From an uncultured Aquincola sp. (GTDB taxonomy: Bacteria > Pseudomonadota > Gammaproteobacteria > Burkholderiales > Burkholderiaceae): a DNA stretch of 5,211 nucleotides. Every line of letters starts with the position of its first letter. Position 1 is the first letter of the stretch. The position numbers were made by a program, and so were the translations under genes. Below are positions 2,156 through 5,211 of this stretch, in pieces. The DNA lies in NCBI GenBank assembly GCA_937883885.1, contig CAKZXL010000024.1, forward strand, positions 1 through 5,211, written 5' to 3'. A model generated the notes under the pieces. That model was not told the DNA's origin. It was given only the letters and a program-made list of their open reading frames with translations, and searched no databases.

Positions 2156-2689
2156 TCAGCCCGCGCGCCGCCGGCGCACGGTGGCGCCACCCACCACCGC
2201 CAGCCCGGCCAGTGCCAGTGCGGCGCTGGCGGGCTCGGGCACGCTGGCCACCGGCGTGGTGCGCCAACTGACCCCGATCGCCGAAGACGTGTCGCCGCCT
2301 GAATCGATTGCGTACACCGCCACGGTGGGCGGCGACCACCAGGTGTTCAGGTAAACGTTCACACGCCGCCCATCGGCCACCGAAAAGCCGATGCCCTGCG
2401 TGGTCAAACCGCCGTCGGCACGGACGAGGTTGTCCACCGGCCAGTCGTTGAGCGGCACCGGCGTGCCGGTGGCCTGCAGGCCGGTGATGGCGTTGCCGTA
2501 GAGCTGCCCCTGGATGGCAGTGACCAGAAAGTAGCCATTGGCGTCGGCCGTGTCCGTCGTGGTGAGCACTCCGCTGCCGAAGCTGCCCAACGAAAAATCG
2601 AAGGTACGCAGCGCATGCGCCGGCGCGGTGAGCGACAGGGTGACAGCCAGGGCAGCAGCGGTGCGCGCAAAGGTCAATGCAATGGCCAT
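2156..2689 (-). CDS. PEP-CTERM sorting domain-containing exported protein
   Basis: This is a 177-residue exported protein. A Sec signal peptide (residues 1-26) ends in an A-H-A cleavage site. The body (27-149) looks beta-rich, with stretches such as GSGVLTTTDT and YFLVTAIQGQLYGNAITGL, a pattern recurring in small PEP-CTERM proteins of unknown role. The C-terminus is a textbook PEP-CTERM signal: V-P-E-P at 150-153, a hydrophobic helix to about 171, then R172-R175. In this system an exosortase cleaves near the PEP motif during export, and substrates are typically tied to exopolysaccharide, biofilm or floc formation. No exosortase gene is in the window, so it must be encoded elsewhere. I chose the ATG at 2689 over an in-frame TTG at 2704 because AAAGGA lies 6 nt before the ATG; the TTG would put that site inside the gene. 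It is transcribed away from the thi operon end and converges on the exonuclease. Its molecular function is unknown. Confidence 0.88.
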   Translation of the reverse strand: MAIALTFARTAAALAVTLSLTAPAHALRTFDFSLGSFGSGVLTTTDTADANGYFLVTAIQGQLYGNAITGLQATGTPVPLNDWPVDNLVRADGGLTTQGIGFSVADGRRVNVYLNTWWSPPTVAVYAIDSGGDTSSAIGVSWRTTPVASVPEPASAALALAGLAVVGGATVRRRRAG

Positions 2690-2695
2690 GTGGTT

Positions 2696-2701
2696 TCCTT
2701 T
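2696..2701 (-). promoter_or_regulatory. Shine-Dalgarno site of the PEP-CTERM gene
   Basis: AAAGGA on the minus strand lies 6 nt before the ATG at 2689-2687. It decides the start: the upstream TTG at 2704 would encode an extra five residues (starting M-K-G-N-H) through this site and has no good ribosome binding site of its own. Confidence 0.75.
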
Positions 2702-2719
2702 CAAATAGAAACTGACAAT

Positions 2720-2736
2720 TGCATTTTGGGTGCCAG
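2720..2736 (-). promoter_or_regulatory. Sigma-54 (-24/-12) promoter of the PEP-CTERM gene
   Basis: The minus strand reads CTGGCACCCAAAATGCA, against the RpoN consensus YTGGCACGrNNNTTGCW. The -24 element CTGGCAC is perfect and the -12 element is ATGCA against TTGCW. The invariant GG and GC are exactly 10 nt apart. This predicts a transcript start near 2709 and a 20-nt leader that contains the Shine-Dalgarno site, which is an excellent geometric fit. Sigma-54 promoters need an activator ATPase. In the exosortase/PEP-CTERM systems of betaproteobacteria the linked two-component pair PrsK/PrsR (PrsR is NtrC-like) is the obvious candidate, but it is not encoded here. Confidence 0.72.
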
Positions 2737-2779
2737 CTTTCGCATTGCAGTGGAGAGAGGGATCATTTGCCCACAGAGT

Positions 2780-3724
2780 TCACGAAGGTGCTGACGGGTG
2801 CACGAAGCGCACCACGCCGGGCCGGTCCACCTCACGCCGCAAGGTGGGTCGCGGCAAGGCCGGCACCGGGCGCCTGGGCGCGGCTTGTCCCTGGTGCACC
2901 GCCTGCTGCAACGCGGCCATCGCGGCCTCGGGGTCGGCCGCACTGGTGATGGCGCTGACCACGCACACGCCATCGGCGCCGCAGCGCATGGCCTCGGCGC
3001 AACGGGCCGCGTCCATGCCGCCGATGCCCACCACCGGCACCGCCTGCAGCAGCGCGCACCAGTAGGCCAGGTTGCCTTCGCCCTGCGGTGTCCAGGGCAT
3101 CACCTTCAGCTGCGTGGCATGGATGGGCCCGCAGGCGATGTAGCTGGGCCCCAGGGCCCAGGCGCGGCACACCTCCCAGTAGGCATGGGTGCTCAGGCCC
3201 AGGCGCAGACCGGCGGCGCGGATGGCGTCCAGGTCGGCGCTGTCCAGGTCTTCCTGGCCCAGGTGCACGCCGTAGGCGCCGTGCTCGATGGCCAGTTGCC
3301 AATGGTCGTTGATGAACAGCTGCGCCCCCGCCGCCTGCGCGGCCTGCACGCTGCGGCGGATCTGCGCGGCCAGTGCCTGCGGCGGCGCCTGCTTGATGCG
3401 CAGCTGCACGGTGCGGATGCCAGCATGCAGCACCCGCGCCACCCAATCGGCGCTGTCGACGATGGCATACAGGCCCATCGAGCGCTCGGCCAGCGGCGCA
3501 AAGGCCTGCAAGGGCGGGCGCACCGGCAGGTTCTCGGCCCGCAAGGCAAAGCCGGCCAGCGGGGTGCCCGCCGGCGTGCGGCGGCGCTGGGCTTCGAACA
3601 TCTGCGCCAGGATGGCGGCTTCGCGGTCCACGAAGCCCAGCTGCTGCGCCGCCTGCAGCGGCGTGTCGGTGGCCACGCCGAAGGCCTGGGCCACGGCGGC
3701 TTGCAAGGTATTGCCGGGGCTCAT
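2780..3724 (-). CDS. thiE: Thiamine-phosphate synthase with an N-terminal extension
   Basis: ThiE condenses HMP pyrophosphate with thiazole phosphate to give thiamine phosphate in the cytoplasm. The TIM-barrel core spans about residues 83-280. Visible motifs are LYAIVDS (85-91), VQLRIK (106-111, pyrophosphate-binding Gln, Arg and Lys), IND (138-140, metal Asp), GVHLGQED (152-159), LSTHAYWEV (177-185), GPIHATQLK (199-207), VVGIGGM (231-237) and GADGV followed by VSAIT (249-260). At 314 residues it is about 100 longer than E. coli or Bacillus ThiE. About 82 extra residues lie at the N terminus and about 34 Pro/Arg-rich residues at the C terminus. The ATG at 3724 overlaps the thiG stop as ATGA, which supports the long start; no clear Shine-Dalgarno is seen, so translation is probably coupled to thiG. 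The extension may derive from the C-terminal part of a ThiD-type kinase, but that is an inference. It is the last gene of the thi operon visible here, and thiD does not follow. Confidence 0.93.
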
Positions 3725-4533
3725 AGGTCGAACGGGCGGCCGCCCACCGGGGTGCTGGCCACCGCCATGTCCTGCGCGGCGATCAGCCCGGCCGCATGGC
3801 CCAGCCAGCCGCCGCGCACCGCATGCGCAAAGGCAGCCGCCATGCGCACCGGGTCGCCCGCCTGCGCCACCGCCGAGTTGAGCAGCACCGCATCGAAGCC
3901 CAGCTCCATCGCCTGCGCCGCATGCGAAGGCGCGCCCAGCCCGGCATCGACGATCAGCGTGACGCCCGGCAGCCGCGCCCGCAGCGTGCGCAGTGCCCAG
4001 GGGTTGAGCAGGCCCTGCGCGGAGCCGATCGGCGCGCCCCAGGGCATCAGGATGCGGCAGCCCGCGTCCAGCAGGCGCTGGCAGCTCACCAGATCGTCGG
4101 TGCAGTACGGAAACACCTCGAAGCCGTCGCGCACCAGTTGCGTGGCCGCGGCCACCAGTTCAACCGGGTCGGGCTGCAACGTGTGCTCGTCGCCCACCAC
4201 TTCCAGCTTGATCCAGTGGGTGCCCAGCAGCTCACGCGCCATGTGGGCCAGCGTCACGGCCTCGCGCGCGCTGCGGCAGCCGGCGGTGTTGGGCAGCAGC
4301 CGGGCGCCGCTGGCGCGGATGATGTCCATGAAGGCGCCCTGGGCACCGCCGCCATCGCCGGCCAGCTCGCGCTTCAGGCCCACCGTCACCACGCCGGTGC
4401 CCGAGGCGGCGATGGCCTGCTGCAGCCCCTGCGGCGAGGGGTAGCCCGCGGTGCCCAGCAGAAAGCGGCTGCGCAGCGGCACGTCGGCCAGCTGCCAGTG
4501 GGCGTCGTCGGGCGGGGTGTGTGGGTCGGTCAC
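3721..4533 (-). CDS. thiG: Thiazole synthase
   Basis: ThiG forms the thiazole phosphate ring of thiamine from deoxyxylulose 5-phosphate, dehydroglycine and the thiocarboxylate of ThiS. The 270-residue protein matches the usual family length. Motifs in order are [10 protein letters not shown] (24-33), TVGLKRE (50-56), LLPNTAGC (79-86), WIKLEVVGD (107-115) with K109 as the expected Schiff-base lysine, [10 protein letters not shown] (138-147), [17 protein letters not shown] (162-178), [12 protein letters not shown] (195-206) and [12 protein letters not shown] (217-228). The start is GTG at 4533, one base after the thiS stop, with AGGAGGT 5 nt upstream. The same frame stays open to an ATG at 4656, but that start would overlap most of thiS and add about 41 residues unlike ThiG. 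The stop overlaps the thiE ATG as ATGA. ThiG normally works in complex with ThiS, the adjacent gene. Confidence 0.96.
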
Positions 4534-4534
4534 G

Positions 4535-4747
4535 TCAACCTCCTGTGATGGGTTTGAAGCACTGCACCTGGTCGCCATCGGCCAGGGCATGGTGGTCGCG
4601 CTGCGCGCGGGCGACGAAGGCGCCGTTGATGGCGGTGGCCACGCTGTCGGGCGCATGGCCCAGTTGCTGGACCAGCGCGGCCAGGCTGCAGCCAGCGGGC
4701 AGCGCGTGCTGCTGGTGGCCCACCTGCACGTGGATGGTGTCGGTCAT
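4535..4747 (-). CDS. thiS: Sulfur carrier protein ThiS
   Basis: This is a 70-residue ubiquitin-like (beta-grasp) sulfur carrier ending in the diagnostic ITGG. The C-terminal glycine is adenylated by a ThiF/MoeB-type enzyme and converted to a thiocarboxylate that donates sulfur to ThiG; no such activating enzyme lies in the window. The pattern fits the family: an N-terminal strand ([12 protein letters not shown]), [10 protein letters not shown] as helix, then [12 protein letters not shown] and the strand run [16 protein letters not shown]. The length is close to the usual 65-70. The ATG at 4747 overlaps the thiO stop as ATGA, and GGAG lies 8 nt upstream. A longer reading from 4864 would overlap thiO by about 120 bases and is rejected. 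The stop is followed after one base by the thiG GTG. Coupled translation of the two complex partners is likely. Confidence 0.95.
4538..4544 (-). promoter_or_regulatory. thiG Shine-Dalgarno made of the ThiS Gly-Gly codons
   Basis: The minus strand reads AGGAGGT, then TTGAC-spaced to GTG at 4533 (5 nt from the last G of GGAGG). The bases GGAGGT are themselves the last two sense codons of thiS, GGA GGT, coding for the diglycine tail. The site fixes the GTG as the thiG start. Confidence 0.85.
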
Positions 4748-5211
4748 GCCAAAGTCTCCGAAGCAAGTGCGGCCAGGGCCTCTTCCACCAGCGCCGGCGC
4801 CAGCAGCCAGCCGTGGCGAAAGAGGCCGTTGATGCGGGTGAGCCCCGGCTGCGCGTGCAGGCAAGGCAGGTTGTCGGGCAGCGCGGGGCGCAGGTTGGTT
4901 TCCAGGTGCAGCACCCGGCCTTCGGCCAGCTCGGGCAGCACGCTGTGGGCCGCGCTCAGCAGCCCCAGCAGGCTGCGCACCGAGACGGGTGAGCGGTCCT
5001 CCGATTCGATCTCGGTGGCGCCCACCAGCACCACGTCATCCGGCCGCGGCACCAGGTACACCCGCCAGCGCGGATGCAGCAGCCGCAGCGGCCGGTGCAG
5101 CACCAGACCGCGGGCCTGCACCCAGGCCACCTCGCCCCGCACGCCACGCACCGGCAGCGCGGGCCGGGCGCCCAGGCCGCGCACGTCGAACACATGGTCG
5201 AAGCGGCGGCC
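4744..5211 (-). CDS. thiO: Glycine oxidase ThiO, C-terminal part (5' end outside window)
   Basis: This FAD-dependent D-amino-acid-oxidase-fold enzyme oxidises glycine to the imine (dehydroglycine) used by ThiG. Only the last 155 residues are present; the frame runs off the window edge at 5211, so the FAD-binding N-terminal GxGxxG motif cannot be checked. Visible are DVRGLGAR near the start, PVRGVRGEV, a substrate-barrel strand YLVPRPDDVVLVGATEIES, and the conserved C-terminal block NLRPALPDNLPCL followed by INGLFRHGWLLAPA. The Arg in the first part of that block and the one in FRHG correspond to substrate/FAD-site residues of Bacillus glycine oxidase. The assignment to ThiO rather than another DAO-family oxidase is secured by the gene order with thiS and thiG. 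Its TGA overlaps the thiS ATG as ATGA. Aerobic glycine oxidation points to the ThiO rather than the ThiH (radical SAM) route. Confidence 0.93.
   Translation of the reverse strand, partial: GRRFDHVFDVRGLGARPALPVRGVRGEVAWVQARGLVLHRPLRLLHPRWRVYLVPRPDDVVLVGATEIESEDRSPVSVRSLLGLLSAAHSVLPELAEGRVLHLETNLRPALPDNLPCLHAQPGLTRINGLFRHGWLLAPALVEEALAALASETLA

What the first reader, a model, noticed from the sequence alone, without database searches (positions are those of the whole stretch)
2690..2736. PEP-CTERM gene driven by a near-perfect sigma-54 promoter
The minus strand carries CTGGCAC-N5-ATGCA with the invariant GG and GC exactly 10 nt apart. The predicted start site leaves a 20-nt leader with a well-spaced Shine-Dalgarno, so promoter, leader and gene fit as one unit. 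Exosortase loci in betaproteobacteria often carry the NtrC-like regulator PrsR with its kinase PrsK, and as I recall RpoN/PrsR dependence of PEP-CTERM genes has been reported in floc-forming relatives. This gene stands alone next to thiamine genes, so it would be a scattered member of an RpoN-controlled surface-protein regulon. The same motif upstream of other PEP-CTERM genes in this genome would define that regulon.
Basis: partly seen in the sequence, partly recalled or inferred. Interest (0 to 1): 0.72.

Follow-up and report, generated by a model that had tools for sequence, protein, structure and literature searches.

The report
Probable sigma-54 promoter, not PrsR type
A gene for a bacterial surface protein has a probable promoter for the alternative sigma factor 54, but it lacks the activator site that marks the known surface-protein regulon and no clear copy was found in its close relatives, so it is a modest addition to a known theme.

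Summary
The site is there as described: minus strand 2736-2720, CTGGCAC-N5-ATGCA, GG and GC 10 nt apart, 11 of 12 consensus positions, predicted +1 at 2709, 20-nt leader with AAAGGA. The gene encodes a PEP-CTERM protein of an Aquincola-like genome.

The window site is therefore probably a real sigma-54 promoter (about 0.7).

The regulon reading fails in part. RpoN/PrsR control of PEP-CTERM genes was predicted in 2006 and pepA is RpoN1-dependent in RN12. The PrsR box found 60-74 nt before 12 pepA sites is absent here (score -3.8; background mean -3.3). Of 80 PEP-CTERM genes examined in the RN12-like genome, only pepA carries it. The two congeneric homologues have no comparable site.

Best reading: a lineage-specific sigma-54 promoter using an unidentified activator. 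New member of a known kind; low interest.

The parts
2720..2736 (-). sigma-54 (-24/-12) promoter-like site CTGGCACCCAAAATGCA
   Evidence: sequence; 11/12 to YTGGCACN5TTGCW; calibration of the same kind of site in relatives
2709..2709 (-). predicted transcription start (+1), 12 nt after the C of GC
   Evidence: inference from sigma-54 geometry (recalled); not mapped
2690..2709 (-). 20-nt predicted leader with Shine-Dalgarno AAAGGA at 2701-2696
   Evidence: sequence
2156..2689 (-). PEP-CTERM protein gene, 177 aa
   Evidence: homologues P0001-P0006
2168..2245 (-). PEP-CTERM domain (residues 149-174)
   Evidence: PF07589, 27.0 bits
2769..2845 (-). stretch where a PrsR box would lie at the published 32-92 nt spacing; none found (best score -3.8)
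   Evidence: spacing from PMC1569441
2780..3724 (-). thiE, upstream on the same strand; stop 90 nt before the PEP-CTERM start
   Evidence: TIGR00693 and PF02581; DNA similarity to the RN12-like genome stops at 2830
2778..2807 (.). two 10-nt direct repeats (2778-2787 and 2798-2807; CTTCGTGNAC on the minus strand), 20 bp apart; candidate activator site only
   Evidence: a comparable phased repeat occurs in 5% of random 150-nt stretches

Best explanation
The PEP-CTERM gene is transcribed from a genuine sigma-54 promoter at 2736-2720, starting near 2709. The promoter is specific to this lineage and is opened by an enhancer-binding protein other than PrsR, at a site not identified here. Shown: the site and its geometry, the PEP-CTERM domain, no recognisable PrsR box, no comparable site before the two congeneric homologues. 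Inferred: that RpoN uses it, the start point, and the other activator.
For: 11/12 match with exact spacing and a usable leader. In the RN12-like genome, 16 of 31 checked TGGCACN5WTGC sites are intergenic (12.6% expected, p 1.8e-7), and 15 of 31 lie 13-154 nt before a same-strand gene. Of the ATGC form, 5 of 14 are intergenic and 4 of 14 are oriented before a gene. Of 6 TGGCACN5ATGCA sites in the two congeneric genomes, 3 are intergenic before genes and 3 lie inside genes. One ATGC-form site stands before the same gene in both genomes (L214, L248). No sigma-70-like site was found in 2600-2950. No PrsR box.
Against: No conservation: the homologue in the RN12-like genome has only a 9/12 site at -75, and the other congener none near the start. 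No convincing activator site: inverted repeats are at background (86% of random stretches have one). The window site scores 8.1 on the pepA -24/-12 model, below each of the 12 pepA sites in leave-one-out (11.1-22.1). Scores of 8.1 or more are not rare (444 of 1,144,320 positions, pepA loci included), and 9 of 80 PEP-CTERM upstreams of 450 nt in the RN12-like genome hold a site of 8.0 or more. The looser TGGCACN6TGC is not enriched in that genome as a whole (129 against 149 for the reversed control). For TGGCACN5ATGCA the two genomes have 6 sites against 3 for the control. The ATGC calibration rests on small counts (5 of 14, p 0.024).
Confidence: 0.62

Rival explanations
1. The site is a chance match. 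The gene is read through from the thi genes upstream on the same strand, or from a promoter of another kind that the consensus scan missed.
For: thiE ends only 90 nt upstream on the same strand, and the scan of 2600-2950 found no minus-strand terminator-like site (one on the plus strand). The site is not found before homologues. The two congeneric homologues share GGTGAGTCTT and GGCGCGGCCAGAATG upstream (read by eye), which suggests another kind of promoter there.
Against: Chance of at least 11/12 in that region is 0.06-0.23%. In the RN12-like genome TGGCACN5WTGC sites are about four times commoner in intergenic DNA than expected, and about eight times commoner before a gene in the right orientation, taking half of the intergenic share as the expectation.
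Confidence: 0.28
2. One reading: the gene is a PrsR/RpoN-controlled member of a scattered PEP-CTERM regulon.
For: The regulon type is real: 99 of 167 proteobacterial PEP-CTERM genes in Haft 2006; pepA depends on RpoN1 in RN12. A strict box-plus-site pattern gives 20 places in 14 of 22 genomes chosen for having pepA, reversed control 1; 8 of the 20 are the pepA promoters the model was built on. By regex 16 of 20 precede a PEP-CTERM-like ORF. The other congener has 3 such places, each with a PF07589 match 0.67-0.78 kb downstream on the same strand.
Against: No PrsR box: best score -3.8 at the allowed spacing, -0.8 anywhere in the 300 nt upstream. Of 80 PEP-CTERM genes examined in the RN12-like genome, pepA alone has box and site. 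The two congeneric homologues lack a comparable site.
Confidence: 0.06
3. A remnant of a sigma-54 promoter brought in with the gene or by rearrangement and no longer used.
For: Neighbours are 82-97% identical to the RN12-like genome (ThiG 97, DUF294 97 over the 180 residues held, ThiE 93, exonuclease 93, ThiS 91, ThiO 82) but the PEP-CTERM protein only 52%, and the locus is rearranged.
Against: GG, GC, spacing and leader are all intact.
Confidence: 0.04

Closest known systems
PEP-CTERM cis-regulatory site: motif 1 (predicted PrsR site) plus motif 2 (sigma-54), Haft et al. 2006, PMC1569441 (abstract and passages seen)
   Same: A PEP-CTERM gene preceded by a -24(GG)/-12(GC) site.
   Different: No motif 1 found. 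Motif 2 ends 30 nt before the start codon (published mean 71, range 23-221), and only 90 nt of non-coding DNA lies upstream of the gene.
pepA of Aquincola tertiaricarbonis RN12, RpoN1-dependent, start mapped, PMC9850573 (outline, part 1 of 3 of section 4, and passages seen)
   Same: PEP-CTERM product; TGGCAC -24 element; probably the same genus.
   Different: pepA has a PrsR box 61 nt upstream and TGGCAC-N5-CTGC (L146). The window protein is not PepA (NF033554 19.3 bits, cut-off 80).

Membership tests
sigma-54 promoter | GG and GC 10 nt apart in a TGGCAC-N5-TTGC context | tested here: met
   11/12, one mismatch (T to A) in the -12 element
sigma-54 promoter | intergenic and correctly oriented before a gene | tested here: met
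   30 nt between the 17-mer and ATG, within the 90-nt gap
sigma-54 promoter | conserved upstream of orthologues | tested here: not met
   14 homologous loci: none has a GG-N10-GC site of 10/12 or more in the 320 nt before the match. Neighbourhood was compared for the two congeners only, and their upstream DNA does not align with the window's
sigma-54 promoter | activator (enhancer) site upstream | tested here: inconclusive
   inverted repeats at background; one phased direct repeat, 5% by chance
sigma-54 promoter | RpoN-dependent transcription from about 2709 | not testable with these tools
   needs 5'-end mapping and an rpoN mutant
PrsR/RpoN PEP-CTERM regulon | PEP-CTERM product | tested here: met
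   PF07589 27.0 bits and TIGR02595 19.5 bits, both over cut-off
PrsR/RpoN PEP-CTERM regulon | PrsR box (motif 1) 32-92 nt upstream of the -24/-12 site | tested here: not met
   best score -3.8; background mean -3.3, sd 4.0; the 12 model boxes score 17.1 or more in leave-one-out
PrsR/RpoN PEP-CTERM regulon | prsR and rpoN in the same genome | not tested
   the window's genome is not held; prsR is present in both congeners (699.5 and 693.2 bits, cut-off 502.6); rpoN was not searched

The most novel reading that the evidence does not exclude
A PEP-CTERM surface-protein gene has been placed under a sigma-54 circuit that does not use PrsR, so its expression answers a different signal from the floc-forming pepA gene. 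A second candidate of this kind is the PEP-CTERM subtilase-like gene L133 in the RN12-like genome, which lies directly behind an NtrC-type regulator.
Probability: 0.5. Interest if true: 0.35.

Novelty: new member of a known kind. Interest (0 to 1): 0.22.

Why it matters
If true, sigma-54 control of PEP-CTERM proteins is not one PrsR regulon but can be wired gene by gene to other activators. The census made on the way is of more use: box plus sigma-54 site was found before 1 of 80 PEP-CTERM genes examined in the RN12-like genome, and at 3 places in the other congener, which has 86 PF07589 matches at E up to 10. Most PEP-CTERM genes there must be controlled in another way.

Tried and rejected
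Own-genome test: not possible. A scan of genome contigs with the PEP-CTERM protein gave 3 loci, two of them matching only the C-terminal part. Plasmids: ThiG gave matches in 540 records, none above 80% identity; the PEP-CTERM locus DNA gave one record covering 11% of the query. Activator site by inverted repeats: at background. L201 (the same place as L230) in the RN12-like genome looked like a second PrsR promoter, but its box scores 4.2 and no ORF of 90 aa or more starts within 350 nt. L096 has a high-scoring site inside a gene (L215); that of L132 looks coding by eye; L127 (11/12 at -109) has no PrsR box. RNA fold of the upstream region: z 0.30.

Limits of the counts. RN12-like PEP-CTERM genes: 80 of 98 matches at E up to 10 were listed and fetched, the 80 all over the cut-off; at E up to 10 the search also rings in 13 of 14 control genomes, in none over the cut-off. 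Starts were chosen by a home-made rule and L120 has no signal-like start. pepA model: 12 of 30 loci. 13 of 30 had a site of 10/12 or more; L190 was left out because its TTTACA lies at another spacing. Of the other 17, L172 and L191 are cut by contig ends and may be misplaced. Box windows were picked by best match to a reference read off these sequences, so leave-one-out scores lean high. The RN12-like pepA (L179 = L146) and the other congener's pepA (L169) are in the model, so their scores are not independent. Calibration: the 31 are the sites with A or T before TGC among the first 100 listed of 129; coding was called with a home-made codon model. In one search several match starts are not start codons. 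In one search the regex took a wrong frame for L246 and missed L233, which looks PEP-CTERM-like by eye.

Full report
What is there. The window holds, on the plus strand, a DUF294/CBS protein (1-1446) and a 3'-5' exonuclease (1455-2132). On the minus strand it holds part of thiO (4744-5211), thiS (4535-4747), thiG (3721-4533), thiE (2780-3724) and the PEP-CTERM gene (2156-2689). The closest match of the PEP-CTERM protein, 99% identical, is named as from an Aquincola sp. MAG (P0001).

Is it more than chance? A site this good arises in 0.23% of Markov copies of the 90-nt region, and at 8 of 922,206 positions of held loci. A sharper test asks what such sites are in a close genome. G575 has contigs of 3,831,859 and 3,115,829 bases, the lengths given in the text of PMC9850573 for the two chromosomes of A. 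tertiaricarbonis RN12. Its ThiG is 97% and its ThiE 93% identical to the window's. TGGCACN6TGC as a whole is not enriched there (129 against 149 for the reversed control). But of the 31 sites with A or T before TGC among the first 100 listed, 16 are intergenic where 12.6% would be expected, and 15 of these 16 lie 13-154 nt before a same-strand gene. By form: TTGC 11 of 17 intergenic; ATGC, the window's form, 5 of 14, of which 4 are oriented before a gene. Of 6 TGGCACN5ATGCA sites in the two congeners (control 3), 3 are intergenic before genes and 3 lie inside genes. One ATGC-form site stands before the same gene in both (L214 and L248). So the window site is probably real; I put it near 0.7.

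Is it part of a PrsR/RpoN PEP-CTERM regulon? That regulon is known. Haft et al. 2006 (PMC1569441; abstract and passages seen) found a sigma-54 motif and, 32-92 nt upstream of it, a second motif ending TTTACA before 99 of 167 proteobacterial PEP-CTERM genes, and proposed PrsR as activator. PMC9850573 (outline, part 1 of 3 of section 4, and passages seen) shows that pepA of RN12 depends on RpoN1, with a mapped start behind TGGCAC and CTGCTT; the promoter I find at L146 has those elements. PMC9012009 (passages seen) states that PrsK-PrsR and RpoN control a PEP-CTERM gene and floc formation in Zoogloea resiniphila. I modelled both motifs from 12 of 30 pepA loci of the family: the box, consensus TGTCG-N7-TTACA, stands 60-74 nt before the -24/-12 site. 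The window has no such box: the best score at the published spacing is -3.8 and anywhere in 300 nt -0.8, against a background mean of -3.3 (sd 4.0) and leave-one-out values of at least 17.1. On the same model the window's -24/-12 site scores 8.1, below the 12 pepA sites (11.1-22.1). In the RN12-like genome 1 of 80 examined PEP-CTERM genes, pepA, has box and site; 9 of 80 have a -24/-12 score of 8.0 or more somewhere in 450 nt, which is no more than chance would give. A strict box-plus-site pattern, run on 22 genomes chosen for having pepA, gives 20 places in 14 genomes (reversed control 1). Eight of the 20 are pepA promoters of the model itself; by regex 16 of 20 precede a PEP-CTERM-like ORF. 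The RN12-like genome has 2 places, one of which (L230) has no ORF behind it, and the other congener 3. The regulon is thus real but small in these genomes, and the window gene is not in it by these signs.

Conservation. Homologues occur in 12 of 299 family genomes, at 14 loci. None has a GG-N10-GC site of 10/12 or more in the 320 nt before the match. I compared neighbourhoods for the two congeners only; both keep the gene near thiE. In the RN12-like genome a terC gene lies between thiE and the PEP-CTERM gene, and sulfatase and NMT1-like genes lie between it and the exonuclease. There the homologue has a weak 9/12 site with GG and GC at -75, a level seen in 12 of 80 PEP-CTERM upstreams of that genome. 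DNA similarity to thiE ends at 2830 and resumes only inside the PEP-CTERM gene; the protein is 52% identical, its neighbours 82-97%. The promoter DNA thus has no counterpart in the congeners: absence there says little about function but speaks against a conserved regulon site. In 30 thiE or exonuclease loci of more distant genomes no relative of the protein was found within the held flanks.

Mechanism. Most likely RpoN-holoenzyme binds 2736-2720 and an activator other than PrsR opens it, giving a 20-nt leader. No activator site could be named: inverted repeats are at background, and a pair of 10-nt repeats 20 bp apart (2778-2787, 2798-2807) has a 5% chance rate. The main rival is chance plus read-through from thiE: no minus-strand terminator-like and no sigma-70-like site was found in 2600-2950.

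Verdict. Observation confirmed; interpretation partly supported; new member of a known kind. Three searches of the held papers (PEP-CTERM with RpoN and PrsR, with sigma-54 and promoter, with exosortase and RpoN) listed no paper whose title or opening lines deal with PrsR-independent sigma-54 control of PEP-CTERM genes; that is a statement about those listings only.

Noticed in passing
L133 / L165 (G575 C2:514274-517859): A PEP-CTERM subtilase-like gene lies directly behind an NtrC-type regulator on the same strand, with GTGGCATAAGCAATGCA (9/12) between them; behind the matching regulator of the other congener (L166) no such gene was seen in the held flank.
   Followed up: partly
L214 and L248: CTGGCACATCGCATGC stands before the same small gene (protein begins MPKVTK) in both Aquincola-group genomes: a shared ATGC-form sigma-54 site.
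   Followed up: partly
L229, L246 (G476): Two further PrsR-box plus sigma-54 places besides pepA, each with a PF07589 match 0.67-0.75 kb downstream on the same strand.
   Followed up: partly
G575, G476: 98 and 86 PF07589 matches at E up to 10; 80 of those in G575 were listed over the cut-off, a large set of PEP-CTERM genes.
   Followed up: partly
window 2156-2689: The PEP-CTERM protein is far more diverged from its positional homologue in the RN12-like genome (52%) than its neighbours (82-97%), in a rearranged locus.
   Followed up: partly
L127 (G575 C2:3576071): PEP-CTERM gene with an 11/12 sigma-54-like site at -109 and no PrsR box.
   Followed up: no
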